In this document: positions 7,101 to 57,908 of the stretch, in pieces
How positions within the stretch are numbered: the first letter of the stretch is position 1
Layout of the letters: each line of letters opens with the position of its first letter
Assembly (NCBI GenBank): GCA_021792365.1
Contig: JAJYUT010000002.1
Span: 516,313 to 580,312 of the forward strand
Length of the DNA: 64,000 bases
Direction: 5' to 3'
Origin: Pseudomonadota bacterium
GTDB taxonomy: Bacteria > Pseudomonadota > Alphaproteobacteria > Dongiales > Dongiaceae
Notes under the pieces: generated by a model
The model's input: the letters and a program-made list of their open reading frames with translations, nothing else
The model's database searches: none
What the model was told of the DNA's origin: nothing
Program-made: the position numbers and the translations under genes

Positions 7101-7446
7101 CAACCGGGTCGACCAGGTCGCCGTCGCTGGTGGTGATGACGATCGCGGCTTCCTCATGGGCTACCACGTAGCCCTGCAGGATGATCGTGCGCCCATCGAT
7201 CACGAAGGCGAGGTTGCCTTCCGGGCCGATCTTCGCCGCCAGGCCATCCACGCTCTCCACCGGCAGCACGATGGTCTGCCCAGGCTGGACCGGGATGCGC
7301 ACCACCTGCTCGCCCTGCGGCAGCTGGATCGGATCGCCCGCTGCGGTGAGCTGCACGGCGCTGACCTCGAACTCGCTGGCAGCCATGTCGGCGCCGGCGT
7401 CAAGATGCGCTTCGCCCGTCGGGAGAATCGTGGAGTCCGTAGCCAT
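1108..7446 (-). CDS. Giant repeat-containing RTX adhesin, type I secreted
   Basis: The predicted protein has 2,112 residues. ATG 7446 is chosen over an upstream in-frame start at 7779 because the paralogue begins at the same MATDST residues and GAGAGGG precedes it. Domains in order: unique head (1 to about 200) with TAAGPAAG; four tandem repeats of about 300 residues (about 203-1400), each with a CVPEDS and a DEEC motif; a cadherin/VCBS-like Asp-rich domain (about 1393-1550); a further beta-rich region; then RTX Ca2+-binding nonapeptides (GGNDTLTGG, GGQGDDTV) near 1980-2005 and a C-terminal type I secretion region. This fits a secreted, calcium-dependent surface adhesin. No ABC exporter, membrane fusion protein or LapD/LapG gene lies in the window. 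Two Cys per repeat are unusual for an RTX protein. Confidence 0.85.
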   Translation of the reverse strand: MATDSTILPTGEAHLDAGADMAASEFEVSAVQLTAAGDPIQLPQGEQVVRIPVQPGQTIVLPVESVDGLAAKIGPEGNLAFVIDGRTIILQGYVVAHEEAAIVITTSDGDLVDPVDVIAATDSSLDIQTAAGPAAGAQGDTAPTNGIYTPFGPGASLGGFSAEGPLGATFLQYKLIDDERREFVRDIEEEPEQPEIPVPTPEISIAAEGGVDPICVPEDSQGEAILVNASTNAGSHLTSIVISGFPVGGAGFVFDFSGLDLANTTITNNIAVDGTITITFIGASAVSFTGSFIVKPPADSDVDLGTLTATVEAASDIDPTVKNTNVDDAFVRVDAIADGDDKGDDGDADVFGVTISVSDGGDANATFQGGEVGTVTVTASFDDFTDGSETHTLTVDAPAGFTFDLGDVGLLPPGVVLDASSTDTKLVFKVDSEGADGVSDLTLNIPVTYGGSEADGESGDFTATVTTTETPTDEECDPNNNTDSASATDDAVIAEIPSTEIRIGAEGNTAPICVPEDSTGVEIPVVASTTAGSHLTTIVISGFPTDAISDGWVFTLTGLDLANTTITNTIAVDGKITITFDNATTTDFTGSFIVQPPADSDVDLGTLTATVEAANNTDPTVKDTDADDAFVRVDAIADGDDKGDDGDADVFGVTISVSDGGDANATFQGGEVGTVTVTASFDDFTDGSETHTLTVEAPAGFTFDLGDVGLLPPGVVLDASSTDTKLVFKVDSEGADGVSDLTLNIPVTYGGSEADGESGDFTATVTTTETPTDEECAPNNNTDSASATDDAVIADAPTTEIRIGAEGNTAPICVPEDSTGVEIPVVASTTAGSHLTTIVISGFPTDAISDGWVFTLTGLDLANTTITNTIAVDGKITITFDNATTTDFTGSFIVQPPADSDVDLGTLTATVEAANNTDPTIKDTDADDAFVRVDAIADGDDKGDDGDADVFGVTISVSDGGDANATFQGGEAGTVTVTASFDDFTDGSETHTLTVDAPAGFTFDLGNVGLLPPGVALDGSSTDTKLVFKVDSEGVDGVSDLTLNIPVTYGGSEADGESGDFTATVTTTETPTDEECDPNNNTDSASATDDVVIADAPTTEIRIGAEGNTAPICVPEDSTGVEIPVVASTTAGSHLTTIVISGFPTDAISDGWVFTLTGLNLANTTITNTIAVDGKITITFDNATTTDFTGSFIVQPPADSDVDLGTLTATVEAANNTDPTIKDTDADDAFVRVDAIADGDDGDGEALGVTITSIEDGGDAGTTFQTNETGTVNISATFDDYKDGSETHTLTVEAPDGFVFDPLVPGPLPAGVTVDASSTPGKLVFNVDSSNPGGVGSFNLSIPVTYTGGVSGGTSGNFTATVTAEEDPTDEECDFDNNKATQSDTEVTSTNDAPTIEVSAIAIVSDEGLTGGLKDNVGVPNDDTDSKTFVGNLTVSDVDGDAVTVSIIDTGSFPAWTFGGTNDVVDWSISGDGLTLTGMANGSVALTVEIAPSGLNTYTYTVTLHQPLNHPNVNVEDELNFDITVQASDGTSTSTDSFNVQVEDDSPVINSIQDAIMPNVEGLSVNGTFDAGFGADLCKQVLVDLGSAAAGTSYTTTSLGTDANGNQVFKVDVTGGDVNFTFYYYATFNAVTEEGEVHAFVEAPSGTSGNLSFAGKEGFFDLTANCDGTYQFDLLNNGFAQIDTVEFATAPSGNFDQLYILDGTFYTPATLPPGETPDVTIDALKAGVDDDVNTSNNGLAVDNQNTDVGETLLFDFAQSQPAVSLTVAKFTGSASQVTLVITISDGNTTSTATVVLNDPGGNNGVPLVINGSLNWSNGYFPFTSLSIANTNNPGNANDGASVNFTDLTFNSETTIGDLSLNFDLTVVDRDGDSKTVADGLTVDLVGTDGEGSDKFTLTGTGAPEVLASGEGADTISGGAGGGDTIDYSNSEAGVTVNLATNTASGGYATGDVISGLENIIGSDFIDTLTGDASANKLSGLGGNDTLTGGGGNDTITGGQGDDTVDVNLGNDTVRITSALDGKDVINGFDNDATDGQDVIDLDGLFDSLSVDSVDRAARVDISTSGGNTLVKVDVDGNLAFDDAGDIQVTIIGVTSGITKGTAATDDVQLGTL
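3250..6840 (-). repeat. Four tandem intragenic repeats (about 900, 900, 900 and 891 bp)
   Basis: The blocks 5941..6840, 5041..5940, 4141..5040 and about 3250..4140 repeat with an exact 900-bp period (the last about 9 bp shorter). The two central blocks are nearly identical in DNA; the outer halves of the first and last blocks are diverged. Such homogeneity implies recent duplication or gene conversion, and the copy number could vary between strains or be misassembled from short reads. Confidence 0.92.
6903..7446. repeat. Direct repeat, copy 2 (adhesin head)
   Basis: This is the second copy of the adhesin-head duplication, matching 196..739. Substitutions are few and frame-preserving, so both copies appear to be under coding constraint. 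Confidence 0.85.
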
Positions 7447-43048: not shown

Positions 43049-44512
43049 GTGGCAAGACGCAGACTGGCCGTCGCGCGGCTCTGGTATGAGGCGAACAGCT
43101 TTTCGCCGTTGCGCACGAAACTCGCGGCCTTCGAGGCCCGCGAGTGGGTGAGCGGCGAGGCGGCGCGGGCCTTCTATGCCGGGACCGCGACGGAGATCGG
43201 CGGCGTCCTGGCGATGGAGCCGGAGCATCCGGACTGGGAGTTCCGCTTTCTCCATTGCACGGCCGCCCCGCCCGGCGGCCTGGTCGAGCCCGCCGCCTTC
43301 GCGGCGATCAGCGAGCGCATTCTAGGCGGCCTTGCCGAGCAGCGCTGGGACGCGGTGTACCTCTCGCTTCACGGTGCGACCGCGACGGTCAACGACCCCA
43401 CCCCGGAGTTCCACCTTTTGCAGGCGATCCGCGAGATCGTTGGCGCGACGCCAATTGCGGCGAGCTTCGACCTGCATGGGCATCTGAGCGCGGAGATGGC
43501 GGCGCTGCTCGATGCGACCTCGGGCTATCACACCTATCCGCATATCGACATGGATGCCGCGGCGAAGCGCGCGCTCGCGTTGCTGATCGCCAAGGTGGAG
43601 GGCCGCGCCGACCCGAGGATCGCGGTCGCCAAGGTGCCGTCCATCATGCCCAGCTTCAACATGCGCACCGCGGACGGGCCGATGGCGGAGCTGCAGGAAC
43701 TGGCCGGCATGTGGCGGCGTCAGCGCGGCATGCTGGACGTGACCATCTATGGCGGCTTCGCCTATGGCGATTCGCCCTTCGCGGGGCCGAGCGTGGTGGC
43801 GGTCGCGGAAAAGGACCAGAAGCTGGCCCAGCGCTGCGCCAATCAGCTTGCCGCCGCGTTCCTGAAGCGCAAGCAGCAATTCTTCGTGCGCCTGCCACGC
43901 CCCGCTGATGGCCTGAAGCAGGCAATGAGGGCAGAGGGTAGCGGCCCTGCCATCGTGCTCGATCCAGCCGATAATCCGCTGTCCGGCGGCATCGGCGACA
44001 CACCAGCCTTGTTCCAGGCGTTGCTCGAGGCCGATCCGCCGGCGGGCACCGTCTTCGCCTTCTTCTGGGACCCGCCGCTGGTCGAGGCGTGCCACCAGGC
44101 GGGCGCCGGCGCCACGATCGACGCCAGGCTGGGCGGGCGCATCACGCTGGATTTTGGCCTGCCCGTCCCGGCCCAGGCCCTGATCCTGAAGCTGACCGAC
44201 GGCAAGTTCCGCAACGAGGGGCCGTACGAGCACAACCTGCCGGTCGATGTAGGCCGGACCGTCCTGCTCGAGGTCGGCGCCGTCCGGGTGGTCGTGACCG
44301 AAAGCTGCCAGACGCCGAACGACCCGGCCTATTTCCGGCTGCATGGCATCGATCCGGAATCGGTGCCGCTGCTCTGCGTGAAGGCCAAGAACCATTTCCG
44401 CGCGGGCTTTACGGGCATGGCGCGCTGCATCATCGACGTGGATTGCCCCGGCCCCGCGGCCGCCGGATTGTTCCACTACAAATTCCGCCACGCGCCCCAA
44501 CATATCTGGTAG
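43049..44512 (+). CDS. M81-family metallopeptidase (MlrC-like)
   Basis: The 487-residue protein begins MARRRLAVARLWYEANSFSP, the usual family start, and contains SLHGATAT, DLHGHLS, YHTYPHID (metal-binding His/Asp candidates) and a C-terminal domain with DPPDNPLSGGIGDT-like residues (DPADNPLSGG). The family contains microcystinase C (MlrC) and many uncharacterised hydrolases. The start is GTG with AAGGGGGA upstream, partly masked by an inverted repeat. It is divergent from the TMADH-like gene. Confidence 0.85.
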   Translation: MARRRLAVARLWYEANSFSPLRTKLAAFEAREWVSGEAARAFYAGTATEIGGVLAMEPEHPDWEFRFLHCTAAPPGGLVEPAAFAAISERILGGLAEQRWDAVYLSLHGATATVNDPTPEFHLLQAIREIVGATPIAASFDLHGHLSAEMAALLDATSGYHTYPHIDMDAAAKRALALLIAKVEGRADPRIAVAKVPSIMPSFNMRTADGPMAELQELAGMWRRQRGMLDVTIYGGFAYGDSPFAGPSVVAVAEKDQKLAQRCANQLAAAFLKRKQQFFVRLPRPADGLKQAMRAEGSGPAIVLDPADNPLSGGIGDTPALFQALLEADPPAGTVFAFFWDPPLVEACHQAGAGATIDARLGGRITLDFGLPVPAQALILKLTDGKFRNEGPYEHNLPVDVGRTVLLEVGAVRVVVTESCQTPNDPAYFRLHGIDPESVPLLCVKAKNHFRAGFTGMARCIIDVDCPGPAAAGLFHYKFRHAPQHIW

Positions 44513-44613: not shown

Positions 44614-45612
44614 ATGGATATCCGCGACGGGTTCATCGGCGCGATCGGCAACACCCCGCTCATCAAGCTCAAGAAGGCGTCGGAGCTGACCGGCTGCACG
44701 ATCCTGGGCAAGGCGGAGTTCCTCAACCCCGGCGGCTCGGTCAAGGACCGCGCCGCCCTCGCCATCATCGAGGATGCCGAGCAGAGAGGCGAGATCCGCA
44801 AGGGCGGCCTGATCGTCGAGGGCACCGCGGGCAATACCGGCATCGGCCTGGCGCTGGTCGGCAACGCGCGCGGCTACAAGACCCTGATCGTGATCCCGGA
44901 CACCCAGTCCCAGGAGAAGAAGGACATGCTGCGCCTCGCCGGCGCTGAGCTCAAGGAAGTGCCGGCCGTGCCATACAAGGATCCCAACAACTACGTGAAG
45001 CTGTCCGGCCGCCTGGCCGAGGAGCTGAAGCCGAGCAACCCGAACGGCGTCATCTGGGCCAACCAGTTCGACAATGTCGCCAACCGCATGGGTCACTATC
45101 GCACCACAGGCCCGGAGATCTGGCAGCAGACCGACGGCAAGGTGGACGGCTTCGTGAGCGCGATCGGCACCGGCGGCACGCTCTGCGGCGTCGCGATGGC
45201 GCTCAAGGAGCGCAACAAGAACGTCAAGATCGCCTGTGCCGACCCCGAGGGCGCCGCGATGTACTCCTACTTCACCACCGGCGAGTTGAAATCGGAAGGC
45301 ACCTCGATCACCGAAGGCATTGGCCAGGGCCGCGTCACCAAAAATGTCGACGGCACGCCGGTCGATTTCGCCTATCGCATCCCCGACAGCGAGGCCCTGC
45401 CCGTCGTGTTCGACCTGCTGAAGGAAGAAGGCCTGTGCCTGGGCGGCTCCACCGGCATCAATGTCGCCGGCGCCATCCGCCTCGCGAAGGACCTGGGCCC
45501 CGGCCACACCATCGTGACCATCCTCGCCGATTTCGGCACCCGCTATCAAAGCAAGATGTTCAATCCGGAGTTCCTGCGCTCCAAGGGCTTGCCGACGCCG
45601 GAGTGGCTGTAG
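44614..45612 (+). CDS. cysK: Cysteine synthase A (O-acetylserine sulfhydrylase)
   Basis: The 332-residue PLP enzyme has the Schiff-base Lys in NPGGSVKDRAAL, the substrate loop EGTAGNTGIGLA and the glycine loop SAIGTGGT. It makes cysteine from O-acetylserine and sulfide. ATG 44614 has GGAG upstream. The protein has a C-terminal FGTRYQSKMFNPEFLRSKG. CysM or cystathionine beta-synthase-like function cannot be excluded. It is 101 bp after the M81 peptidase and convergent with the GST gene. Confidence 0.88.
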   Translation: MDIRDGFIGAIGNTPLIKLKKASELTGCTILGKAEFLNPGGSVKDRAALAIIEDAEQRGEIRKGGLIVEGTAGNTGIGLALVGNARGYKTLIVIPDTQSQEKKDMLRLAGAELKEVPAVPYKDPNNYVKLSGRLAEELKPSNPNGVIWANQFDNVANRMGHYRTTGPEIWQQTDGKVDGFVSAIGTGGTLCGVAMALKERNKNVKIACADPEGAAMYSYFTTGELKSEGTSITEGIGQGRVTKNVDGTPVDFAYRIPDSEALPVVFDLLKEEGLCLGGSTGINVAGAIRLAKDLGPGHTIVTILADFGTRYQSKMFNPEFLRSKGLPTPEWL

Positions 45613-45633: not shown

Positions 45634-46272
45634 CTACATCTGCGGCGCGGTCGCGGCGAGGCTCGGGCGTTGTTGCATGGCGAGCCACCAGTGCGAGAGC
45701 TTCGGCAACTTGGCCATCGCGCGGGTGCCTTCGGGGAATTGCACGAAATAGCCTATAATCGGCGCTAGGAAGAGGTCCGAGAAGCTGACATCGCGTCCAA
45801 CCAGATAAGGATCGGAGCCGAGCATCAGGTCCTGGATCGCGGCGAGCGCGTGCTCCGCCGCCGGGGTCGCTTCGGCGATCGCCGCCATGTCCGGCCCCTT
45901 CTCCTTGTCGGCGAAGTAGTAGCGCAGCACGATGTCCACAATGATGCGCTTGTAGGCGTAGCCGTTGATGACGTCGACGATCTGCTGGTCGCGGGTGCGG
46001 CGGTGGACATTCGGATGGGCGAGGCGGCGCCCGGGGAATGCATCGTCGATGTAATGCGCGATGGCGTTGCTCTCATAGATTGCGAAGCCGTTATGCTCTA
46101 AGGCGGGCACCTTTCCGAAGGGATGGCGCTCCAGCCAATCACGCTGGAGGTGCACGCCGGCCATCATGTCCACGTGCACCAGGTCATAATCGACGCCCTT
46201 CTCCAGCAGCGCCATCCGGATGGTCCGCGCGAAGGTGCTGTAGGTCGGGCCGTGCAGGGTCGGCTTGCTCAT
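45634..46272 (-). CDS. Glutathione S-transferase family protein
   Basis: The 212-residue protein has an N-terminal thioredoxin-like domain (about 1-80, with Ser/Thr near YSTFARTIR, FGKVPALEHNG and the gamma-glutamyl-binding ESNAI) and a helical C-terminal domain (about 90-205). Length is standard. The gene stands alone between convergent cysK and the divergent AlaX operon. Confidence 0.88.
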   Translation of the reverse strand: MSKPTLHGPTYSTFARTIRMALLEKGVDYDLVHVDMMAGVHLQRDWLERHPFGKVPALEHNGFAIYESNAIAHYIDDAFPGRRLAHPNVHRRTRDQQIVDVINGYAYKRIIVDIVLRYYFADKEKGPDMAAIAEATPAAEHALAAIQDLMLGSDPYLVGRDVSFSDLFLAPIIGYFVQFPEGTRAMAKLPKLSHWWLAMQQRPSLAATAPQM

Positions 46273-46376: not shown

Positions 46377-47093
46377 ATGGAATTGCTGTTCCGCCAGGAC
46401 GCCTATCTGAAATCGTGCGACGCGACGGTGGTCGCGGTCGACGAGACGGGTATCCGGCTGGACCGCACCGTCTTCTATCCCATGGGCGGCGGGCAGCCCG
46501 GCGATTTCGGGCGCCTCACCCTGTCCGATGGCGGCGTGATCGGGATCGTCGATACCGTGAAGGGCGCTCATCACGAGGACGTGGTGCACGTGCCCCAGCC
46601 CGGCTCGCCGGCGCTCGCGCCCGGCATGAAACTCCGCGCCGAGATCGATTGGGAACGCCGCCACCGTTTGATGCGCATGCATACCTGCCTGCACCTGCTC
46701 TCCGCCGTCATCAAGGGCGATGTGACCGGCGGCCAGGTAAGCGACGGCAAGGGCCGGCTCGATTTCAACCTGCCCGACCAGGGCCTGGACAAGGACCTGA
46801 TCACGCGGGAGATCAACCGCCTGATCCAGGAGGACCACGCCGTCCGCCAGCGCTGGATCACGGATGAGGAACTGGCGGCCCAGCCGGAGCTGGTGCGCAC
46901 CATGTCGGTGAAGCCGCCGATGGGCAGCGGCAAGGTCCGCCTGCTGGAGATCGACGGGGTAGACCTGCAGCCTTGCGGCGGCACGCATGTCATGCGCACC
47001 GGGGAGATCGGCCCGATCGAGGTCACCAAGATCGAGAACAAGGGCAAGATGAACCGCCGCGTCAACCTGGCCTTAGTCGGTGCCGCGCAATGA
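46377..47093 (+). CDS. Alanyl-tRNA editing protein, AlaX type
   Basis: The 238-residue protein matches the editing domain of alanyl-tRNA synthetase: PMGGGQPGD (about 35), the zinc motif HTCLH (about 102-106) and CGGTHV (about 200). It deacylates Ser/Gly-tRNA(Ala) made in error. ATG 46377 is chosen because GGGAGGA precedes it and the family begins there; two earlier ATGs at 46341 and 46344 are possible. It is first of six overlapping genes. Confidence 0.87.
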   Translation: MELLFRQDAYLKSCDATVVAVDETGIRLDRTVFYPMGGGQPGDFGRLTLSDGGVIGIVDTVKGAHHEDVVHVPQPGSPALAPGMKLRAEIDWERRHRLMRMHTCLHLLSAVIKGDVTGGQVSDGKGRLDFNLPDQGLDKDLITREINRLIQEDHAVRQRWITDEELAAQPELVRTMSVKPPMGSGKVRLLEIDGVDLQPCGGTHVMRTGEIGPIEVTKIENKGKMNRRVNLALVGAAQ

Positions 47094-47950
47094 CCTACGT
47101 CAATCCGCAAAGCCTGGTCTCGACCGAGTGGTTGGCCGCCCATCTGCAGCAGCCTGACCTGCGCATCGTCGACGGCACCTGGTACCTGCCGGCACAGGGG
47201 AAGGATGCAAAGGCGGAATACCTGCAGCGCCATATTCCCGGCGCGGTGTTCTTCGATATCGACGACATCTCTGATACCACCTCCTCGCTGCCGCATATGT
47301 TGCCGCCGCCCGAGAAGTTCGCCTCGCGCGTCCGCAAGCTCGGCATCGGCGACGGCAACCGCATCGTGGTCTACGACGCCAACAACATGAGCGCGGCGCG
47401 GGTCTGGTGGATGTTCCGCATCTTCGGTGCGCGCGAGGTCGCGATCCTCGATGGCGGGCTCGGCAAGTGGCTGGCGGAGGACCGCCCGGTCGAGGATGGC
47501 GAGGTGACGCTGCAGGAACGCCACTTCACCGCGCGGCTCGACAACACGCAGGTCCGCGGGAAGGGCCAGATGCTGCGCAATCTCGAGACCAGGCGCGAGC
47601 AGGCGCTGGACGCGCGCGCCGCCGGACGCTTCAATGCCACCGAGCCGGAGTTGTGGCCCGGCCGCCGCGCTGGGCATATCCCGGGCGCGCGCAACCTGCC
47701 CTACAACCAGATCTTCAATGCCGACGGCACGCTCAAGGATGCCGACGCGTTGCGCCGCCTCTATGAAGGCGCGGGCATCGATCTCAGGAAGCCGGTCGTG
47801 ACCTCCTGCGGGTCGGGCATCACCGCCTGCGCGCTGGCGTTCGGGCTGCACCTCATCGGCCATCGCGATGTTGCGGTCTATGACGGATCCTGGGCCGAAT
47901 GGGGCCTGCCCGGCGACACGCCCGTCGAACCCTCGGGCGCCGGGACCTGA
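47090..47950 (+). CDS. sseA: 3-mercaptopyruvate/thiosulfate sulfurtransferase
   Basis: The 286-residue protein has two rhodanese domains: an inactive N-terminal one (about 5-130) and a catalytic C-terminal one with Cys in SCGSGITACA. CGSG(V/I)TA is typical of SseA-type 3-mercaptopyruvate sulfurtransferase. Its ATG overlaps the AlaX stop (ATGA) and its stop overlaps the GNAT start (TGATG). It probably handles sulfur from a sulfur-containing amino acid. Confidence 0.9.
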   Translation: MTYVNPQSLVSTEWLAAHLQQPDLRIVDGTWYLPAQGKDAKAEYLQRHIPGAVFFDIDDISDTTSSLPHMLPPPEKFASRVRKLGIGDGNRIVVYDANNMSAARVWWMFRIFGAREVAILDGGLGKWLAEDRPVEDGEVTLQERHFTARLDNTQVRGKGQMLRNLETRREQALDARAAGRFNATEPELWPGRRAGHIPGARNLPYNQIFNADGTLKDADALRRLYEGAGIDLRKPVVTSCGSGITACALAFGLHLIGHRDVAVYDGSWAEWGLPGDTPVEPSGAGT

Positions 47951-48954
47951 TGCTCATCCGCGCCTACGTCCCGAGCGATTTCGCGGCTGTCACGGCGCTG
48001 TGGGATGCGACCGGCATCTCCATCCACTACAACGATCCCGCCAAGGACATCCGGCGCATGCTGGCGACCCATGATTGCCAGCTCTATGTCGGGGTGGAGG
48101 ACGATCGCGTGATAGCCTCCATCATGGTCGGGCACGAGGGCCATCGTGGCTGGCTTTACAAGCTCGCCGTGCTGCCTGAGTTCCAAGGCAAGGGATACGG
48201 CCGCGACCTAGTGCAACAGGCGGAGCGCTGGCTGGTGGCGCGCGGGATGCCGAAGGTCAACCTGATGATCCGCGACACCAACATCAAGGTGCGCCAGTTC
48301 TACGAGCGCCTCGGATACACGGTCGCCGCGCGCACGGTGATGGAGCGCTGGCTCAAGCCCGACGCAATAGACATGGAGCCAGGCGAGCTCGACGTCATCA
48401 CCACCTCGTTGGAAATGACGGAGCGGCCGACGCGGCCGACAATCCCCTGCCCGCCCAGCCACCACGCCGTGCTGCGCCTGGAGCGGCCCTCGATCCAGTT
48501 CTACCGCTATATCTACAAGCTGGTCGGCGAGCGCTGGATGTGGGCCGACCGGCGCACGATGAGTGACGAGGCGTTGAGCGCCGAGATCACCGCCGCGGGT
48601 GTCGAAATCTACGTGCTCTACGCCGGCGGCGAGCCAGCCGGCTATGTCGAGCTCGACCGCCGGCCGAAGCCGGACATCCTCATCGCCTATTTCGGCTTGG
48701 CGCCGCATTTCATCGGACGCGGGATCGGCCGCTATCTGCTCAATTGGGCGATCGACCAGGCCTGGACCTACGGGCCGCAGCGGCTGCTGGTCAACACCTG
48801 GTCGTTCGATCACCCGCGCGCCTTCACCAATTACCAGAAGGCCGGCTTCCGGCCTTATCGGCAGACGCGCGGCAAGATCCTCGACCCGCGTCTCGAGGGA
48901 CTGATCCCGGCGGACGTGCAGCCGCGCGTCGCGCCGGCGGCAGGCGAGCCGTGA
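47950..48954 (+). CDS. Tandem double-GNAT acetyltransferase
   Basis: The 334-residue protein contains two GNAT domains: about 1-140 with LAVLPEFQGKGYGRDL and RQFYERLGYTV, and about 160-320 with FGLAPHFIGRGIGRYLL and FTNYQKAGFRPY. Each has its own acetyl-CoA motif (QGKGYG; IGRGIG). The linker (about 140-160) is Pro/Thr-rich. It is overlapped on both sides by neighbours (TGATG and GTGA), so it is part of the same coupled operon. Substrates unknown. Confidence 0.85.
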   Translation: MLIRAYVPSDFAAVTALWDATGISIHYNDPAKDIRRMLATHDCQLYVGVEDDRVIASIMVGHEGHRGWLYKLAVLPEFQGKGYGRDLVQQAERWLVARGMPKVNLMIRDTNIKVRQFYERLGYTVAARTVMERWLKPDAIDMEPGELDVITTSLEMTERPTRPTIPCPPSHHAVLRLERPSIQFYRYIYKLVGERWMWADRRTMSDEALSAEITAAGVEIYVLYAGGEPAGYVELDRRPKPDILIAYFGLAPHFIGRGIGRYLLNWAIDQAWTYGPQRLLVNTWSFDHPRAFTNYQKAGFRPYRQTRGKILDPRLEGLIPADVQPRVAPAAGEP

Positions 48955-49265
48955 GCGGGCCGCGCCTGCAGCGCGTTGCCGATCAGGATCGACGCCTGAT
49001 CGAGATCACTGTCGACGGCTGGGCAATGAGCGCGATGGAAGGCGACACGCTGCTGGTCGCCATCCTGGCCCAGCGGTCATATCTGCGCGAAGCATCGGGG
49101 GAGCCGCAGGGCGAAATGCCTGCGGCCGGGTTCTGTCTCATGGGGGCATGCCAGGATTGTTGGGTGTGGCACGAGGATGGGCGGCGCGTCCGCGCCTGCA
49201 CCACCTATGCCGAGCCGGGCATGCGTATTCGGACCACATGGCCGGATCACCTGCTCGCATCCTGA
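48951..49265 (+). CDS. 2Fe-2S subunit of a three-component amino-acid/opine-type dehydrogenase
   Basis: The 104-residue ferredoxin-like protein has C-x4-C-x2-C in FCLMGACQDCW plus a fourth Cys in RACTTY, matching the small Fe-S subunit of HcnA/LhpE-type oxidoreductases. It would carry electrons between flavins. The GTG start overlaps the GNAT stop (GTGA), and its 3' end overlaps the next gene by 28 bp. Confidence 0.87.
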   Translation: MSGPRLQRVADQDRRLIEITVDGWAMSAMEGDTLLVAILAQRSYLREASGEPQGEMPAAGFCLMGACQDCWVWHEDGRRVRACTTYAEPGMRIRTTWPDHLLAS

Positions 49266-50623
49266 TCATCGGCGCCGGCCCCGCCGGGCTGCGTGCCGCC
49301 GAGATGCTGGCGGAGGCCGGCTGCTCGCCCATCCTGATCGACGAGGCGCCGCGGGTCGGCGGACAGATCTACCGCCAGCCGCCGCGCGTACCTGGCTTCA
49401 CGCGCACGGCCTCTGAGCTTTATGGCGCCGCCGCCGACCGGGCGCGCGATCTCTTCGTCACCTTTGACCGCATTCGGCAGCGCATCGACTACCGGCCGAG
49501 CAGCCTGGTCTACGACCTGATCGACAACCGCGCCATCGTCGCCAGCGAGGGGAAGAGCGAGGAGATCGCCTTCGATGCGATGATCCTGGCGACCGGCGCG
49601 ATGGATCGCATCATCCCTGCGCCGGGCTGGACCCTGCCCGGAGTCTACACCCTGGGGGCCGCACAGATCGCGCTCAAGCACCAGGGCTGCGCCATCGGCA
49701 AGCGGATCGCCTTCGTCGGCGGCGGGCCGCTGCTGCTCCTGGCCGCCCATCAATATGCGAAAGCGGGCGCGGTGCCGGCGGCGATCGTCCTGCCGTCGCG
49801 CTTCGAATCGTTGGCGGCCGCCGGCCTGCGCCTGCTCCCCATGCCGCGGGAGCTGTCGTCGGGGCTGCTCTGGCTGCTCGACCTGAAGCGGCGCGGGGTC
49901 CCCGTCCTGTTCGGCCATCGGCTGGTGAAGGTGAAGGGCGCGGAGAGCGTCACCGGCATTATCGCGGAACGCGCGGGCCGACAGCGCGTGATCGCCTGCG
50001 ACGCAGTGGCGCTGGGCTATGGATTGCGGTCGGAGACGCAACTGGCCGACCTTGCCGGCATCCGGTTCGTGTTCGATGCCGAGCGGCGGCAATGGCTGCC
50101 GGAAACCGATCCCCTGGGCCGCGCGGCGGGGCGCAAGGACATCTATCTGGCCGGTGACGGCGCCGGCATCCTCGGCGCGGATGCGGCGGAGGCGCGTGGA
50201 CGGCTCGCCGCCCATGCGCTGATGACGGATCTCGGCATCGCGCATGAGCGCTATCGGCCGAAGCCGGACAAAACCGCCGTTGCATGCGCGGAGCGCTTGC
50301 AGGCGGCGATGCGCGCGGCCTTCGATCCGCCCGCCGATCTTGTCACCGCCATTCCCGATGAGACCATCCTCTGCCGCTGCGAGCGGATACTGGCTGGGGA
50401 GTTGCGCGCCCTTGCGGGATTGCTGGGCGCGCGCGAGGTGAACCGCGCGAAGTCCTTTTCGCGCATCGGCATGGGACGCTGCCAGGGCCGGCTCTGCGGT
50501 CATGCAGCGGCGGAGATCCTCGCCGGCAAGCTCGGCATCAGCCTGGACAGCGTCGGCCGTTTGCGCGGCCAGCCGCCGATCAAGCCGGTCATCGTCTCGA
50601 CCGTGGCGGAGCGCAAGGCATGA
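49238..50623 (+). CDS. FAD/NAD(P)-binding subunit with BFD-like Fe-S domain (HcnB/opine oxidase A-like)
   Basis: The 461-residue protein begins with a Rossmann motif ILIIGAGPAGLRAAEML, has the central GKRIAFVGGGPLLL and the FAD-closing YLAGDGAGILGADAAEARGR, and ends with a BFD-like [2Fe-2S] domain (ILCRCERI, GMGRCQGRLC). This matches the alpha subunit of hydrogen-cyanide synthase, octopine/nopaline oxidase or D-hydroxyproline dehydrogenase complexes. ATG 49238 overlaps the small subunit. It partners with the next gene. Confidence 0.88.
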   Translation: MAGSPARILIIGAGPAGLRAAEMLAEAGCSPILIDEAPRVGGQIYRQPPRVPGFTRTASELYGAAADRARDLFVTFDRIRQRIDYRPSSLVYDLIDNRAIVASEGKSEEIAFDAMILATGAMDRIIPAPGWTLPGVYTLGAAQIALKHQGCAIGKRIAFVGGGPLLLLAAHQYAKAGAVPAAIVLPSRFESLAAAGLRLLPMPRELSSGLLWLLDLKRRGVPVLFGHRLVKVKGAESVTGIIAERAGRQRVIACDAVALGYGLRSETQLADLAGIRFVFDAERRQWLPETDPLGRAAGRKDIYLAGDGAGILGADAAEARGRLAAHALMTDLGIAHERYRPKPDKTAVACAERLQAAMRAAFDPPADLVTAIPDETILCRCERILAGELRALAGLLGAREVNRAKSFSRIGMGRCQGRLCGHAAAEILAGKLGISLDSVGRLRGQPPIKPVIVSTVAERKA

Positions 50624-51909
50624 CCGCGCGCATCGCCCTGAAGAGCGACGTCCTGATCGTCGGCGCGGGCATCGCCGGCTGCGCCACCGCCCTGCAGCTT
50701 GCGCGCCGCGGCAAGCTGGTTACGCTGATCGAGCGCGACCAGGCCGGCATCCGGGCCAGCGGCGTCAATTTCGGCGGCGTGCGCCAGAACGGGCGCGACC
50801 TGCGCGAGCTTCCCATCGCCATGCGCGCCCGCGCGATGTGGGACGAACTGCCGGGCCTCATCGGCTTCGACGGGGAGTTCCGCGCGACCGGCAATCTGCG
50901 CCTCGCCTCCGACGAGGAGCGCGTCGCCCAGCTCGACCGGTTCTTCACGGCGGCGACCGAGCAAGGGCTGGGCCTGGTGCGGCTGGACCGCGCCGAGCTG
51001 AAAGCGCGCTATCCCTGGCTGTCGGACAGGCCGATCCGCGGCGTGCTCTGCCCCAGCGACGGCCACGCCAATCCGCGCCTGGTGGGGCCGGCCTTCGCCT
51101 TCGCCGCGCAAGAGGCCGGCGCAACGCTGATCGAGCACACGGAGATTCTGGAGGGCTGGTATGCCAATGGCGCGTTCCATCTGCGCGCCGCCGACAACCG
51201 CACTTTCGCCGCGCCGATGCTGGTGAACTGCGCCGGCGCCTGGGCGGGCAAGATCGCCGGCTGGTTCGACGAGCCGGTCACGCTGGCGCCGGAGATCCCG
51301 CAGGTGCAGGTGACGGAGCCGCTGCCCTATCGCATCGAGCCGGTGCTCGGTGTCATGGGCGGCGATTTCTACCTGCGCCAGACCTTCCGCGGCAACATCC
51401 TGTTCGGCTCCGGCCAGGGCCGCGCGACGCCGGATGCGCTGCGCAGCCGGCCCTTGCCGGAGACCATGCGCCGCGGCGCCGAGATCGCGATCGCCTTCAT
51501 CCCGCACCTCGCGCATGTGCCGATCATCCGCGCTTGGACCGGCGTCGACGGCGACACGTCGGACGGCGTCTGCGTCCTCGGGCCGAGCGAGACGCATCCC
51601 GGCCTGTTCCACGCCTTCGGATTCAACGGACACGGTTTCCTGCTCGGCCCGGCTGTGGGGGCGGTGATTGCGGAACTGATCCTCGGCGGCAAGACGTCGA
51701 CGGACATCGCCGGCTTGGGCATCGGCCGTTTCCGGCCGGCCCGGAAGGCGTCAGCCGCGCCGGCGCGCGGCCAGCATCCAGATGAAGAGCGCGACGCAAG
51801 CCCCGAACAGAACGGCGCCCAGAATGCCGACCGTGGTTCCATCGGTATGGAGCGCAACGAGCAGGCTGCCGGCGCACATCAACGCGCTGAGCACGGCCAG
51901 GACCGCTAG
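50620..51909 (+). CDS. DAO-family FAD oxidoreductase subunit (HcnC/opine oxidase B-like)
   Basis: The 429-residue protein has FAD motif VLIVGAGIAGCATALQLARRG and the DAO C-terminal GVDGDTSDGVCVLGP and GFNGHGFLLGPAVG. It is the substrate-oxidising subunit of the complex and dehydrogenates a secondary amine, probably an N-substituted amino acid, imino acid or opine. It overlaps the preceding stop (ATGA). The conserved domain ends near 51750; the last about 50 residues are low-complexity and lie antisense to the next gene, so this C-terminal extension may not be conserved. Confidence 0.85.
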   Translation: MTARIALKSDVLIVGAGIAGCATALQLARRGKLVTLIERDQAGIRASGVNFGGVRQNGRDLRELPIAMRARAMWDELPGLIGFDGEFRATGNLRLASDEERVAQLDRFFTAATEQGLGLVRLDRAELKARYPWLSDRPIRGVLCPSDGHANPRLVGPAFAFAAQEAGATLIEHTEILEGWYANGAFHLRAADNRTFAAPMLVNCAGAWAGKIAGWFDEPVTLAPEIPQVQVTEPLPYRIEPVLGVMGGDFYLRQTFRGNILFGSGQGRATPDALRSRPLPETMRRGAEIAIAFIPHLAHVPIIRAWTGVDGDTSDGVCVLGPSETHPGLFHAFGFNGHGFLLGPAVGAVIAELILGGKTSTDIAGLGIGRFRPARKASAAPARGQHPDEERDASPEQNGAQNADRGSIGMERNEQAAGAHQRAEHGQDR

Positions 51910-52275
51910 GCTGACCGCGCCATGCGCCTTGGCGGAAGCGGAGATCGCTTCGCCGTAGGTCAGCCGCTCGCCGGCGAGCGGCCATGCACGGACCCGCTGC
52001 CACAACGGCATCAGCACGGCGAGCGCCAGCAGCAAGAAGATCGCGACCGTCGCCATCCAGCGCGGCTGGAAAGGGTCGCCGCTGATCATCAGCGTCGGCA
52101 CGATGGCCACCAGCACGCCGACATAGTAGATCTTGAGATAGCGGCGGACCCACGTGGCGTCCGCCTCGCTCGGAATGATGCGGCCCTTGCCGAGCCGGCC
52201 CCAGATGAAGAAGAGCTCACGCCCCTCCGCGTCCCGCTTGAAGGAGGCTGCGGTCAGCCCATCGAAATAGCCCAT
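51751..52275 (-). CDS. Conserved hypothetical membrane protein
   Basis: The 174-residue protein begins MGYFDGLTAASFKRD, with RGELFF-like residues ELFFIWGRLGKGRII and then four predicted membrane helices (about 55-75, 82-100, 125-145, 150-168) and a basic AARRRG end. ATG 52275 has a GGGGG-rich ribosome site. I recall similar short membrane proteins in other bacteria but no function. Its 3' end overlaps the convergent dehydrogenase gene by 159 bp. Confidence 0.75.
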   Translation of the reverse strand: MGYFDGLTAASFKRDAEGRELFFIWGRLGKGRIIPSEADATWVRRYLKIYYVGVLVAIVPTLMISGDPFQPRWMATVAIFLLLALAVLMPLWQRVRAWPLAGERLTYGEAISASAKAHGAVSLAVLAVLSALMCAGSLLVALHTDGTTVGILGAVLFGACVALFIWMLAARRRG

Positions 52276-52297
52276 CCCCCGCCCCCGCCAGCCGATA

Positions 52298-53083
<786 letters not shown>

Positions 53084-53102
53084 GGGGCTGCCCTCCTGTT
53101 CA

Positions 53103-54248
53103 TCATCGCTTGTGCCCGGTGTGCAGCTTGCGCTCCAGGTGCATGCTGTAGCGCGACATCGAGAAGCAGCAGACCCAGTAGACCGCCGCACAGAACGCGA
53201 ATCCGGTGATCTCCACGCCGACCCAGTTGGCGTCCTTGAAGCCGGTCTTGACCATGTTCAGGAAGTCGTAGAGGCCGACCATCGACACCAGCGTGGTGTC
53301 CTTGAAGAACCCGATGAAGGTGTTGACGATGCTGGGGATCGAGATGCGCAGCGCCTGCGGCAGGATGACGAGGCGCATCACGCCCCAATAGCCGAGGCCG
53401 AGCGCCATCGCGCCCTCGAACTGCCCCTTGGGGATCGCCTGCAGGCCGCCGCGTATCACCTCCGCCATGTAGGCGGATACGAAGGCCGTGGTCCCGACCA
53501 GCACGCGCAGCAGCACGTTCACCTGCATGTCCGGCGGCAGGAACAGCGGCAGCATGATGTTCGCCATGAAGATGACGGTGATCAGCGGGACCCCGCGCAC
53601 GAACTCGATGAAGATCACGCAGAGCAAGTGCACGACCGGCAGGTTCGACCGGCGCCCGAGCGCGAGCAGAATGCCGAAAGGCAGCGACAGGACGATGCCG
53701 ACCAGCGCGATGACCAGCGTCAGCATGAAACCGCCCCACTGCTCGGTCGGGACCGACATCAGACCGAGGCCGCCGCGCAGCAGCCAGAACGACACGATCG
53801 GGAACACGACGAAAAAGAAGATCGCGGCATACTTCCTGAACCGCGCGGGGCCGCCCAGCAGGCCGTAGATGCCGATCGCGCCCAGTACGAAGGAGAGGAT
53901 GACCCGCCAGCGTTCCGGCTCCGGATAGAAGCCGAATAGGAACTGCCCGATGCGCGCCCGCACGAAGAGCCAGCACGCGCCGTCCGGGCAATCGCTGGAT
54001 CGCGGCGACCGGTCGCCGACGATCACTTCGGTCGGGAAAACCCAGGTGGCGAGCGTCGTGGCCCAGGCTACCAGCGGCGGGATGATGAGATAGAGCAGCA
54101 GGAGCGACAGGATCGTGAGCGCGATGTTCAGCGGCGAGGAGAACAGGTTCTCCCGCATCCAGGCCCACGGGCCGGAGACGCTCATCGGCGGCGGCAGATC
54201 CGGCTTGCGGCCTTCGCTCGGCGGGACGCTGACAGTCTCATCCGTCAT
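53103..54248 (-). CDS. aapM: General L-amino-acid ABC transporter permease AapM
   Basis: The 381-residue permease has an N-terminal extension and membrane segments, then a C-terminal HisM-type permease domain with [13 protein letters not shown], and an EAA-like loop [24 protein letters not shown]. AapM proteins are longer than ordinary permeases, as here. It lies 19 bp before aapP. Confidence 0.93.
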
Positions 54249-54257
54249 CGCCGCCTC

Positions 54258-55451
54258 CTACCGTTCCACCAGCGCGATGCGCCGGTTGTACCAGTTCATG
54301 AAAAGTGAGATCAAAATGCTGATCACCAGGAAGAACACCATCATGATGGCGATGTTTTCCACGGGGCGACCGGTCTGGTTCAGCGAGGTGCCAACGATCG
54401 AGAAGAGATCGGGATAGGCAATCGCGCCGGCCAAGGTCGTGTTCTTCACTATGTTGAGGTACTGGCTTGTCATCGGCGGAACGATGATGCGCAACGACTG
54501 GGGAATGATGACAAGGCGCAGCGTCGTTCCAGGTTTGAGCCCGAGGGCATAGGCGGCCTCCGTCTGGCCATGGCTGACCGCGAGGATGCCTCCGCGCACG
54601 ATCTCCGCGATAAAGGAGGCCGTGTAGGCGGTCATGCCGAGCACCAGGGCCGTCAGCTCCGGCTGCAGCACCAGTCCGCCCTGGAAGTTGAAGCCCGTGA
54701 GCTCGGGCACTTGCCAACTCACCGGATTGCCGAGCGCGAGGCTGGCGATCAGCGGCAACCCGACGATGAGGCCAAGGCCGACCCGGCCCTTCGGGAATTG
54801 CTGTCCGGTCGCCATCTGCCGCCGGTGCGCCCAGCTTGCGATACCGATCGCGAGGGCGATCCCGACCGCGAGCGCGACGAGCACGATGCCAAAATCCTCC
54901 TCCGGAATCGGGCGCGGGATGTTGACGCCGCGGTTGCTCATGAACATCAGGTCGAACACGTTGATCGCCTGCCGCACATTGGGGAAGAGCTGCAGGATCG
55001 CCACGTACCAGAACAGCAATTGGACCAGCAGCGGGATGTTGCGCAGGGTCTCGACATAGGCGGTCGCGAGACGGGAGATGAGATAGTTCTTCGAGAGCCG
55101 GCAGATGCCGACGATGACCCCCAGAATTGTGGCGAGCGCAATGCAAATCGCCGAAGCCAGCAGGGTGTTGATCATGCCGGCGAGGATCACGCGGCCGATG
55201 CTGGAATTGAGGTCGGTCGGGATGATGGAGAAGCTGATCGCGAAGCCCGCCGGCGCATTCAGGAAATCGAAGCCGAGCGGAATACCCAGCCGGCGCAGGT
55301 TGTCGACCATGTTCGCGATGATGAACCACACGCCAAGGCAGAGCACCGCGACGACGACGATCTGCCAGATGATCCCGCGCGTCCGCTCGTCACGCCACCA
55401 CGCGATTGATGTCCTGCGGCCCCTGGATCTGCCTGCGCTGATCTCTGCCAC
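54258..55451 (-). CDS. aapQ: General L-amino-acid ABC transporter permease AapQ
   Basis: The 397-residue permease has the long-form Aap architecture, with N-terminal helices, ETLRNIPLLVQLLFWY and the EAA-like loop EAAYALGLKPGTTLRLVIIPQSLR. It is 9 bp upstream of aapM. A strong hairpin separates it from aapJ. Confidence 0.93.
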   Translation of the reverse strand: MAEISAGRSRGRRTSIAWWRDERTRGIIWQIVVVAVLCLGVWFIIANMVDNLRRLGIPLGFDFLNAPAGFAISFSIIPTDLNSSIGRVILAGMINTLLASAICIALATILGVIVGICRLSKNYLISRLATAYVETLRNIPLLVQLLFWYVAILQLFPNVRQAINVFDLMFMSNRGVNIPRPIPEEDFGIVLVALAVGIALAIGIASWAHRRQMATGQQFPKGRVGLGLIVGLPLIASLALGNPVSWQVPELTGFNFQGGLVLQPELTALVLGMTAYTASFIAEIVRGGILAVSHGQTEAAYALGLKPGTTLRLVIIPQSLRIIVPPMTSQYLNIVKNTTLAGAIAYPDLFSIVGTSLNQTGRPVENIAIMMVFFLVISILISLFMNWYNRRIALVER

Positions 55452-55491
55452 GCCTCACCTCCCCATGGGCTGAGGTGGAATCCAAAGCGGA

Positions 55492-55518
55492 AACGCCCGG
55501 CGTATTTCGCCGGGCGTT
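55492..55518 (-). other. Intercistronic hairpin between aapJ and aapQ
   Basis: AACGCCCGGCG (55492..55502) pairs perfectly with CGCCGGGCGTT (55508..55518) over a 5-base loop: 11 bp, very GC-rich, without a following U run on the minus strand. It is probably an mRNA-stability or attenuation stem that favours binding-protein output. Confidence 0.75.
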
Positions 55519-55536
55519 CGCCGTCTCAGTTCGTCT

Positions 55537-56577
55537 TCAGCGCACCGGGGGTGCGTATTGCAGCCCGCCCTGCGTCCAGAGGGCGTTCAGGCCACGCTCG
55601 AGAGCCAGCGGCGTGTCCTTGCCGATGTTGCGCTCGAACGACTCGCCATAGTTGCCGACCTGCTTGACAACATTGTAAGCCCAGTCGCGGCTCAGGCCCA
55701 GGCTTTCGCCCATCTTGTCAGTGATGCCGAGGAGACGCTGAACCTCCGCGTCCGCGCCCTCCGCGCCTTCCGCGTTTTTGGCCTTCACCTCATCCACGTT
55801 CGCGGAGGTGATGCCCTTCTCCTCGGCGACCAGCATCGCGTAGTGCACCCAGGTGATGATGTCCAGCCATTGGCTGTCGCCGGCCCGCACCGCCGGTCCC
55901 AGCGGCTCCTTGGAGATGATCTCCGGCAGGATGACATGCTCGCCCGGCGCCTTCAGGCCCGTGCGCTCGGCCGCAAGACCGGACGCGTCGGTCGTGTAGG
56001 AATCGCAGCGACCCTCGTCATAAGCGGCGCGGGCCTGCTCGCTCTCCTTGAACTTCACCGGCTGGGTGCCGAGATTGTTCGCCTTGTCGAAGTCGCCAAG
56101 GTTCTTCTCGGTCGTGGTGCCTTCCTGCACGCACACCGTGGCGCCTTTCAGCTCCTTGGCGCTGGTGATGCCGAGATCCTTGCGCACCATGAAGCCTTGG
56201 CCATCGTAGTAGTTTACCGCCCGGAAATCGAAGCCAAGCTGAGTATCGCGGCTCAAGGACCAAGTCGTGTTGCGGGCCAGGACATCCACCTCGCCGGATT
56301 GCAGGAGTGGGAAACGCTGCTCCGCATTGCTCGGCTTGTACTCGACCTTGTTGGCGTCACCCAGCACAGCCGCGGCAATCGCCTTGCAGAGGTCCACGTC
56401 AAGGCCTGCCCACACGCCCTGATCATTCGGCGCCGCGAAACCCGCCAGGCCGCTGTTCACGCCGCATTTCAGTTTTCCCGCCGCCTTCACGCTCTCTAGC
56501 GTCGAAGCCGCCTGGGCCGCCGTCGACATCCCCGCGAGGAGGGCAACGCCCGCGACCAAAGTTTTTACATGCTTCAT
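55537..56577 (-). CDS. aapJ: General L-amino-acid ABC transporter substrate-binding protein
   Basis: The 346-residue protein has a Sec signal (MKHVKTLVAGVALLAGMSTAAQAA) and the family opening STLESVKAAGKLKCGVNSGLAGF, then FDVLARNTTWSLSRD-type residues and GKDTPLALERGLNALW. This is the AapJ subfamily, which binds polar, acidic and branched L-amino acids. It is the first gene of the operon, divergent from metC. Confidence 0.93.
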   Translation of the reverse strand: MKHVKTLVAGVALLAGMSTAAQAASTLESVKAAGKLKCGVNSGLAGFAAPNDQGVWAGLDVDLCKAIAAAVLGDANKVEYKPSNAEQRFPLLQSGEVDVLARNTTWSLSRDTQLGFDFRAVNYYDGQGFMVRKDLGITSAKELKGATVCVQEGTTTEKNLGDFDKANNLGTQPVKFKESEQARAAYDEGRCDSYTTDASGLAAERTGLKAPGEHVILPEIISKEPLGPAVRAGDSQWLDIITWVHYAMLVAEEKGITSANVDEVKAKNAEGAEGADAEVQRLLGITDKMGESLGLSRDWAYNVVKQVGNYGESFERNIGKDTPLALERGLNALWTQGGLQYAPPVR

Positions 56578-56726: not shown

Positions 56727-57908
56727 ATGGCCGAACAGGGTAAAAAAGACCGCACGATCGCCACACACGCCGGTAACCATCCACACGAGAACCAGGGAGT
56801 GGTTAACCCGCCGGTCTATCGTGCGTCGACCGTCCTGTTCCGGTCGGTCCAGGACCTCCGGGAGCGCTACAGGCACAAGTATGAAACCGTCACGTATGGC
56901 CGCGACGGCACGCAGACGCACCGGGCGCTGGCGGAAGCCTTCACGGCCCTGGAGGGATCGGAGCGCGCCATCATCCTGCCGTCGGGCCTGGCGGCGGTCT
57001 CGACCGCGCTGCTCACCTGCCTCAGCCCGGGCGACAACCTGCTGATGGTCGACAGCGCTTACGAGCCGACGCGGGAGATCTGCGCCGGCCTGCTTGCCCG
57101 GATCGGCATCGAGACGACCTACTACGACCCGATGATCGGCCGCGAGATCGCCGGCCTCATCAAGCCGAACACGAAGGTCATCTACATGGAGAGTCCCGGC
57201 TCCCTGACCTTCGAAACGCAGGACATCCCGGCGATTGTCGCGGCGGCCAGGCAGGCGGGCTGCCGCACCATCCTCGACAATACCTGGGCGACGCCCCTGT
57301 TCTTCAAGCCGCCGCAGCACGGCATCGACATCGGCGTCTATTCCGCCTCCAAGTATATCGGCGGTCATTCCGACATGATGATGGGGATCCTCACCTGCCC
57401 CGCCGCGCTCCACAAGACAGCCGCCAAGATGGCGCACGGCTATCTCGGCCATGCCGTTTCTGCCGATGATGCCTATGGCGCGCTGCGCGGCCTGAGGACC
57501 ATGCATGCGCGCCTGGCGCAGCATCAGGAGACAGCGCTGATCCTCGCGCGCTGGCTGGCCGACCGGCCGGAGGTGGAGCAGGTGCTGCATCCCGCCTGGC
57601 CCGGGACGCCGGGCCATGAGTTCTGGAAGCGCGACTATGCCGGCGCATCGGGCCTGTTCGGCGTGGTGCTGAGGCCCTGCACGATGGAGCAGGTGGACCG
57701 CATGCTGGATGGCATGCGCCTGTTCGGCATGGGCTATAGCTGGGGCGGCTATGAGAGCCTGATGATCCGGGCCGACCTTAAGAACTGCCGCACGGCGAAG
57801 CCCTGGCATGCGGCGGGGCGCACGCTGCGCATCCATGCCGGCCTTGAGGATCCGGACGACTTGATCGCCGATCTCGAGGACGGGCTGGCCCGCTACAGGG
57901 GGGCGTGA
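56727..57908 (+). CDS. metC: Cystathionine beta-lyase
   Basis: The 393-residue PLP enzyme of the Cys/Met metabolism class has THAGNHPHENQGVVNPPVYRASTV, YGRDGTQTH, the PLP-Lys in SASKYIGGHSD and ESPGSLTFE. The motif set fits MetC of alphaproteobacteria: it cleaves cystathionine to homocysteine, pyruvate and ammonia. It precedes hisI with a TGATG overlap. Other gamma- or beta-lyases of the family are possible. Confidence 0.9.
   Translation: MAEQGKKDRTIATHAGNHPHENQGVVNPPVYRASTVLFRSVQDLRERYRHKYETVTYGRDGTQTHRALAEAFTALEGSERAIILPSGLAAVSTALLTCLSPGDNLLMVDSAYEPTREICAGLLARIGIETTYYDPMIGREIAGLIKPNTKVIYMESPGSLTFETQDIPAIVAAARQAGCRTILDNTWATPLFFKPPQHGIDIGVYSASKYIGGHSDMMMGILTCPAALHKTAAKMAHGYLGHAVSADDAYGALRGLRTMHARLAQHQETALILARWLADRPEVEQVLHPAWPGTPGHEFWKRDYAGASGLFGVVLRPCTMEQVDRMLDGMRLFGMGYSWGGYESLMIRADLKNCRTAKPWHAAGRTLRIHAGLEDPDDLIADLEDGLARYRGA

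What the first reader, a model, noticed from the sequence alone, without database searches (positions are those of the whole stretch)
46377..51909. Six-gene overlapping operon linking tRNA editing, sulfur transfer, double acetylation and an amine dehydrogenase
AlaX, SseA, a double-GNAT protein and the three subunits of an HcnABC/opine-oxidase-like enzyme overlap in series. Such strict coupling suggests one function, e.g. degradation or detoxification of an unusual amino acid that also causes tRNA(Ala) mischarging, with editing and acetylation as protection.
Basis: inference. Interest (0 to 1): 0.6.

Follow-up and report, generated by a model that had tools for sequence, protein, structure and literature searches.

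The report
Cysteine operon with added amine dehydrogenase
Six overlapping genes in a Dongia-type soil bacterium are really two units: an old, widespread cysteine-metabolism gene set (cysK-alaX-sseA plus an acetyltransferase), and a three-subunit flavin amine dehydrogenase that was added behind it once, in one bacterial family, and has since been lost in several relatives.

Summary
The six genes exist as described (46377-51909) and overlap. The gene order is conserved in eight Dongiaceae genomes, so it is not an oddity of this genome. It is not one indivisible unit, however. cysK-alaX-sseA is present in 17/17 family genomes and in many other Alphaproteobacteria, usually followed by the GNAT gene and flanked by aapJQMP, metC and hisI. 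The dehydrogenase triad (gamma-alpha-beta) sits behind the GNAT in only 8/17 family genomes. It is in none of the 20 class-wide GNAT loci read outside the family, and in only 2 of 80 named-organism loci, both Dongia-type. Elsewhere the triad stands alone, often beside ABC importers. Trees place the linked triads in one clade that follows the core genes, so it was probably gained once in the family ancestor and later lost. All flavin and [2Fe-2S] motifs of the heteromeric opine/D-hydroxyproline/proline dehydrogenase superfamily are kept, but the triad falls outside the nopaline/octopine-oxidase and D-HypDH-like clades. Most likely it is a co-transcribed accessory amino-acid or opine-like dehydrogenase. 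A shared detoxification pathway with AlaX is possible but not supported.

The parts
44614..45612 (+). cysK, cysteine synthase A; constant upstream partner of alaX-sseA
   Evidence: NF007989 PRK10717 563.7 bits, cut-off 387; upstream of alaX in 17/17 family genomes
45634..46272 (-). GST-family gene inserted divergently between cysK and alaX in Dongia and in G005
   Evidence: Pfam GST_N/GST_C; absent at this place in L013-L018
46377..47093 (+). AlaX-M-type free-standing alanyl-tRNA editing protein, 238 aa; zinc ligands H102, H106, C200, H204 kept
   Evidence: tRNA_SAD, NF040865 AlaXM 222.9 bits below its cut-off of 300; alignment A2 and PDB match 2e1b/9iuw
47090..47950 (+). SseA, 3-mercaptopyruvate sulfurtransferase with CGSGIT loop
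   Evidence: NF008557 285.8 bits, cut-off 250; best PDB match 3-mercaptopyruvate sulfurtransferase 3olh
47950..48954 (+). double GNAT protein: N half YpeA family, C half a separate conserved GNAT
   Evidence: NF002959 153 bits, cut-off 124; Acetyltransf_1 x2; PDB 2pdo YpeA; alignment A1
48951..49265 (+). gamma subunit, Fer2_4 [2Fe-2S] protein, C-X4-C-X2-C-X12-C; GTG start
   Evidence: Pfam PF13510 5.6e-20; motif
49238..50623 (+). alpha subunit, FAD (GxGxxG) plus BFD-like [2Fe-2S], CxC-X33-C-X4-C
   Evidence: Pyr_redox_2, SO_alpha_A3; motif; profile match to 1y56_A
50620..51909 (+). beta subunit, DAO-type FAD catalytic subunit with R-x-W FMN motif; last ~50 aa overlap the convergent gene
   Evidence: PF01266 4.9e-66; motif; profile match to 1y56_B 6.7e-65
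51751..52287 (-). convergent small membrane-protein ORF, no family
   Evidence: no Pfam/NCBIfam hit; 73% identical relative in Dongia deserti
52298..56577 (-). aapP, aapM, aapQ, aapJ general amino-acid ABC transporter, conserved neighbour
   Evidence: conserved beside the GNAT gene across named loci; the four names are assigned from sequence and gene order, not from an HMM hit
56727..57908 (+). metC-like Cys/Met PLP enzyme, followed by hisI-like PRA-CH
   Evidence: PF01053 1e-99, PF01502; conserved

Best explanation
The locus is two modules that now share one transcription unit. Module 1, (cysK)-alaX-sseA-GNAT, is an old alphaproteobacterial cysteine/sulfur-amino-acid gene set next to aapJQMP and metC. 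CysK makes cysteine, SseA handles 3-mercaptopyruvate sulfur, and AlaX clears mischarged tRNA(Ala), probably seryl- or glycyl-tRNA(Ala), as known AlaX proteins do. The GNAT acetylates an unknown target. Module 2 (gamma-alpha-beta) is a heteromeric FAD/FMN/2x[2Fe-2S] dehydrogenase that was added behind the GNAT once, in the ancestor of the family. It oxidises the C-N bond of an amino acid or an N-substituted, opine-like amino acid and passes the electrons through its iron-sulfur clusters towards the respiratory chain. Shown: gene content, order, motifs, single clade, gain and loss pattern. Inferred: co-transcription, activity, substrate class, electron acceptor.
For: cysK-alaX-sseA lies together in 17/17 family genomes, and sseA or cysK is beside alaX in about 21 of the 30 best AlaX loci of the class. 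In 80 named GNAT loci SseA is present in 69, CysK 55, AlaX 52, MetC 46, AapP 44, and the triad in 2. The triad lies behind the GNAT in 8/17 family genomes, and is absent and not relocated in the other nine. Linked triads form one clade (beta 99/96, alpha 83/82) whose branching fits the core-gene tree, with members in both deep clades. Class-wide homologs (~50% identity) are unlinked to GNAT; in the four genomes outside the family that pass the cut-offs for both, the two are on different contigs. All cofactor motifs are kept. The beta subunit is closest in the PDB to 1y56_B, the L-proline dehydrogenase beta subunit. The SG(V/T)N-(F/Y)-G-(G/N)-x-R-x-x-G-R motif is largely shared with type-2-like beta subunits and absent from NoxB, OoxB and the D-HypDH-like beta.
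Against: The GNAT-triad linkage, mostly with a 4-bp overlap, survived about 50% protein divergence and is present wherever the family has the triad (8/8). That may mean a real functional tie rather than a chance neighbour. No characterised enzyme lies inside the triad's own clade, so the substrate class is a guess. Transcription was not tested.
Confidence: 0.7

Rival explanations
1. One reading: all six genes serve one pathway that breaks down or detoxifies an unusual amino acid which also mischarges tRNA(Ala); AlaX and the GNAT protect the cell.
For: Overlapping genes; GNAT-triad linkage kept in 8/8 family genomes that have the triad.
Against: alaX-sseA-GNAT exist without the triad in most genomes, with cysK, aap and metC as constant partners; the triad works elsewhere without alaX, sseA or GNAT.
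Confidence: 0.12
2. The triad acts on a cysteine-derived compound, for example thiazolidine-4-carboxylate (cysteine plus formaldehyde), returning cysteine to the pool, which would explain its place in a cysteine operon.
For: Cysteine context; beta is nearest the archaeal L-proline dehydrogenase in the PDB, and thioproline is a proline analogue; a ChaC gene lies between GNAT and gamma in G005.
Against: No direct evidence on substrate; homologs elsewhere are next to peptide, polyamine-type or amino-acid importers with no sulfur genes seen; BjOpnDH2, a type-2 relative, did not use L-proline (PMC4575208).
Confidence: 0.08
3. The triad is an HCN synthase (HcnABC), and the nearby MST and cysteine synthase handle the cyanide.
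For: Same subunit set and the same gene order gamma-alpha-beta as hcnABC (HcnABC order from general knowledge); SseA-type enzymes can turn cyanide into thiocyanate (general knowledge).
Against: SseA and CysK are there without the triad in most genomes; close triad relatives sit beside importers, which a glycine-using HCN synthase does not need. No HcnABC reference sequence was in hand, so clade membership was not tested.
Confidence: 0.05
4. Pure hitchhiking: the triad is only physically attached, with no functional or regulatory meaning.
For: Absent in 9/17 family genomes and outside the family at this site.
Against: Translational coupling and position kept over deep divergence in five genera.
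Confidence: 0.25

Closest known systems
Flavin-containing opine dehydrogenase, type 2 (BjOdhB2 / BtOdhC-A-B; Watanabe 2015, PMC4575208)
   Same: Three subunits; order gamma-alpha-beta as in B. thailandensis; FAD, FMN and two [2Fe-2S] motifs; beta subunit shares the SG(V/T)N..G..R..GR motif with type-2-like beta subunits of Azospirillum
   Different: Beta only 34-37% identical to the type-2-like Azospirillum beta subunits and outside their clade; alpha falls in a different clade from opine dehydrogenase alphas; no opine genes nearby
Nopaline and octopine oxidase NoxAB/OoxAB of Ti plasmids
   Same: Same subunit architecture and cofactor motifs
   Different: Separate clade, order beta-gamma-alpha, lacks the second arginine motif
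D-hydroxyproline dehydrogenase (heterododecameric, PMC4575208)
   Same: Same three-subunit build
   Different: D-HypDH-like A. oleiclasticum enzyme (DapA-like neighbour) is far from the window clade; no hydroxyproline genes seen here
Archaeal dye-linked L-proline dehydrogenase PDH (1y56)
   Same: Best PDB match for both beta and alpha profiles
   Different: Archaeal, different subunit arrangement; beta lacks the GR motif
HCN synthase HcnABC
   Same: Subunit set and gene order (general knowledge)
   Different: Not compared by sequence here; importer-rich contexts of relatives argue against it
AlaX-M alanyl-tRNA editing proteins (2e1b)
   Same: Full-length match with zinc ligands kept
   Different: Bacterial operon context with cysK and sseA

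Membership tests
Heteromeric flavin amine dehydrogenase superfamily (OpnDH/D-HypDH/HCN synthase/L-ProDH) | beta subunit of DAO fold with N-terminal GxGxxG | tested here: met
   PF01266 4.9e-66; motif present
Heteromeric flavin amine dehydrogenase superfamily (OpnDH/D-HypDH/HCN synthase/L-ProDH) | gamma [2Fe-2S] motif C-X4-C-X2-C-X11-12-C | tested here: met
   CLMGACQDCWVWHEDGRRVRAC
Heteromeric flavin amine dehydrogenase superfamily (OpnDH/D-HypDH/HCN synthase/L-ProDH) | alpha FAD motif and C-X-C-Xn-C-X4-C cluster | tested here: met
   X33 spacing, as in NoxA (X33) and OoxA (X32); PMC4575208 prints X15-20
Heteromeric flavin amine dehydrogenase superfamily (OpnDH/D-HypDH/HCN synthase/L-ProDH) | Arg-X-Trp FMN motif in beta | tested here: met
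   RAW at residues 304-306
Opine dehydrogenase type 1 (Nox/Oox) | groups with NoxB/OoxB and NoxA/OoxA | tested here: not met
   separate, well-supported clades in alpha and beta trees
Opine dehydrogenase type 2 | beta groups with type-2-like B2 of B1-C-A-B2 clusters | tested here: inconclusive
   next clade out (94/88), motif shared, but not inside; BjOdhB2 itself was not available
Opine dehydrogenase type 2 | oxidises octopine | not testable with these tools
   needs assay
D-hydroxyproline dehydrogenase | clade with D-HypDH and hydroxyproline pathway neighbours | tested here: not met
   with a D-HypDH-like reference identified by its DapA-like neighbour only; neighbours in the window are different
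HCN synthase HcnABC | clade with HcnB/HcnC | not tested
AlaX-M editing protein | tRNA_SAD domain, HxxxH and CxxxH zinc ligands | tested here: met
AlaX-M editing protein | NCBIfam NF040865 cut-off 300 bits | tested here: not met
   222.9 bits over the full model
3-mercaptopyruvate sulfurtransferase SseA | NF008557 above cut-off; CG(S/T)G(V/I)T active loop | tested here: met

The most novel reading that the evidence does not exclude
The triad is a dehydrogenase for a cysteine-derived cyclic or N-substituted amino acid, retained by selection inside the cysteine operon of Dongiaceae, with ChaC in one relative feeding the same salvage route. It would be the first heteromeric flavin amine dehydrogenase in sulfur-amino-acid salvage that I know of.
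Probability: 0.12. Interest if true: 0.55.

Novelty: new variant of a known kind. Interest (0 to 1): 0.3.

Why it matters
The conserved cysK-alaX-sseA-GNAT/aap/metC neighbourhood suggests that free-standing alanyl-tRNA editing in Alphaproteobacteria is tied to cysteine/serine metabolism, a link I did not find described in the literature searched. The triad belongs to a broad clade of multi-subunit amine dehydrogenases in which I found no characterised member; the Dongia locus gives a tractable three-gene unit for finding its substrate. The case also shows that overlap in one genome is weak evidence for one pathway.

Tried and rejected
Membership in the nopaline/octopine oxidase clade and the D-HypDH-like clade was rejected by trees of both subunits. 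Recent insertion limited to this genome was rejected because the linkage spans five genera. Relocation of the triad elsewhere in genomes that lack it was rejected: no match at E<=1e-40 apart from a 33% identical distant paralog in G016. An internal promoter was looked for and none found. The literature searches for an alaX-cysteine link, for alaX in Dongia and for HcnABC with mercaptopyruvate gave nothing useful. A comparison with HcnABC could not be made because no HcnABC sequence was in reach. Structure prediction was not used: sequence profiles already reach 1y56 over the full length of beta.

Full report
Observation. The six genes are real, at the stated coordinates, on one strand, with overlaps of 4, 1, 4, 28 and 4 bp. 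They are AlaX (46377-47093), SseA (47090-47950), a double GNAT (47950-48954), and the gamma (48951-49265), alpha (49238-50623) and beta (50620-51909) subunits of a flavin/iron-sulfur dehydrogenase. Domain searches agree. Only one sigma-70-like match lies in the region, upstream of alaX, and that number is expected by chance.

The organism. The closest named relative is Dongia deserti (L071; 86% in the GNAT protein). The window lies in a 5.43-Mb assembly. Its family has 17 genomes here and is alone in its order.

Conservation inside the family. cysK-alaX-sseA stands together in all 17 genomes. The double GNAT follows in 11. The dehydrogenase triad follows the GNAT in 8: G000, G009, G010, G011, G005, G012 (contig ends inside alpha), G014 and G001. 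Three genomes have the GNAT without the triad (G013, G015, G016), and in two of these the GNAT faces aapP directly. Six genomes of one genus have neither GNAT nor triad at this place. The triad is not found elsewhere in the genomes that lack it, apart from a 33% identical distant paralog in G016. In G005 a ChaC gene lies between GNAT and gamma. In six of the eight linked loci the GNAT stop and gamma start overlap by 4 bp, read from the gene calls; G012 has a short gap and G005 has ChaC.

Conservation outside the family. In a class-wide sample of 385 genomes, full or partial GNAT relatives occur in 46 and alpha relatives in 25. Apart from the window's own genome, four have both, always on different contigs. 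Twenty GNAT loci read in full have cysK, sseA, often alaX, and usually aapJQMP/metC, and no triad (two of them are poorly called). In 80 loci from named genomes (Azospirillum, Thalassospira, Skermanella, Oceanibaculum and others) SseA is present in 69, CysK in 55, AlaX in 52, MetC in 46, AapP in 44, and the triad in 2, both Dongia-type. Among the 30 best AlaX loci of the class, CysK is beside AlaX in 21 or 22 (one hit is only 25% identical) and SseA in 21. AlaX can be missing while cysK-sseA-GNAT stays.

The triad elsewhere. Twenty class-wide triad loci at about 50% identity have other neighbours: dipeptide-type ABC importers with an SDR, polyamine-type importers with IclR regulators, a class III aminotransferase with an Lrp regulator, or D-amino-acid dehydrogenase. 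Plasmid-borne relatives in Burkholderia, Paraburkholderia and Acidovorax lie beside importers, aldehyde dehydrogenase and aminotransferase genes. This is the company of a catabolic enzyme for an imported amine or amino acid.

History. In maximum-likelihood trees the linked triads are one clade (beta 99/96, alpha 83/82). A tree of CysK+AlaX+SseA puts triad carriers in both deep clades of the family, and the triad trees branch in the same way. The simplest reading is one gain behind the GNAT in the family ancestor and several losses.

What the triad is. Gamma keeps C-X4-C-X2-C-X12-C, alpha keeps GxGxxG and CxC-X33-C-X4-C, and beta keeps GxGxxG and the Arg-X-Trp FMN motif. These are the motifs named for opine dehydrogenase, D-hydroxyproline dehydrogenase and L-proline dehydrogenase (PMC4575208). 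Profiles of beta and alpha match the L-proline dehydrogenase complex 1y56 best. The clade is separate from Nox/Oox and from a D-HypDH-like enzyme. Its beta shares SG(V/T)N-(F/Y)-G-(G/N)-x-R-x-x-G-R, with A in place of F/Y, with the B2 subunits of Azospirillum B1-C-A-B2 clusters, which by gene order correspond to the octopine-active BjOdhB2. NoxB, OoxB, the D-HypDH-like beta and 1y56 beta lack the second arginine. A second arginine could bind a second carboxylate, as in opines; this is inference only. HCN synthase could not be tested because no reference sequence was available.

What module 1 is. AlaX keeps its zinc ligands H102, H106, C200 and H204 and matches the archaeal AlaX-M structure over its length. 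SseA is of MST type with CGSGIT. The GNAT is a fusion of a YpeA-family domain and a second GNAT that stands alone in other lineages. The constant partners are cysK, metC and the amino-acid importer aap, so a role around cysteine and serine supply is the most economical reading. That AlaX is there because serine, the precursor of the CysK substrate, mischarges tRNA(Ala) is plausible but not shown; the Ser/Gly specificity of AlaX is general knowledge, not tested here.

Verdict. The single-pathway interpretation is weakened because the proposed protecting genes are a widespread cysteine gene set that lives without the dehydrogenase. The remaining question is why one family has kept the two together, and what the enzyme oxidises.

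Noticed in passing
window 1108-7446 (-): A giant ORF of about 2100 aa with an RTX calcium-binding repeat near its C terminus and four 900-bp-spaced direct repeats, three of them 96-100% identical over a 300-nt core.
   Followed up: partly
window 51751-51909: The beta-subunit gene runs about 159 bp into the convergent membrane-protein ORF; beta in other genera ends earlier (about 369-377 aa), so the last ~50 aa look like a Dongia-specific read-through tail.
   Followed up: partly
window 45634-46272 (-): A GST-family gene has been inserted divergently between cysK and alaX in Dongia and in G005, splitting the cysK-alaX pair; other family members keep cysK and alaX adjacent.
   Followed up: partly
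L012:8189-8875 (-): A ChaC-like gamma-glutamylcyclotransferase gene lies between the GNAT and gamma genes in G005.
   Followed up: no
window 43049-44512 (+): An M81/MlrC-type metallopeptidase precedes cysK in most Dongiaceae loci that carry the GNAT; role unknown.
   Followed up: partly
L158, L160: Azospirillum genomes carry a B1-C-A-B2 dehydrogenase cluster (with a RidA-like gene) that matches the Bradyrhizobium octopine dehydrogenase order.
   Followed up: partly
L018:3340-4338 (-); L068:6106-7089 (-): The N-terminal GNAT half of the double-GNAT protein looks degenerate while the C-terminal half stays conserved; in many lineages only the C half exists.
   Followed up: partly
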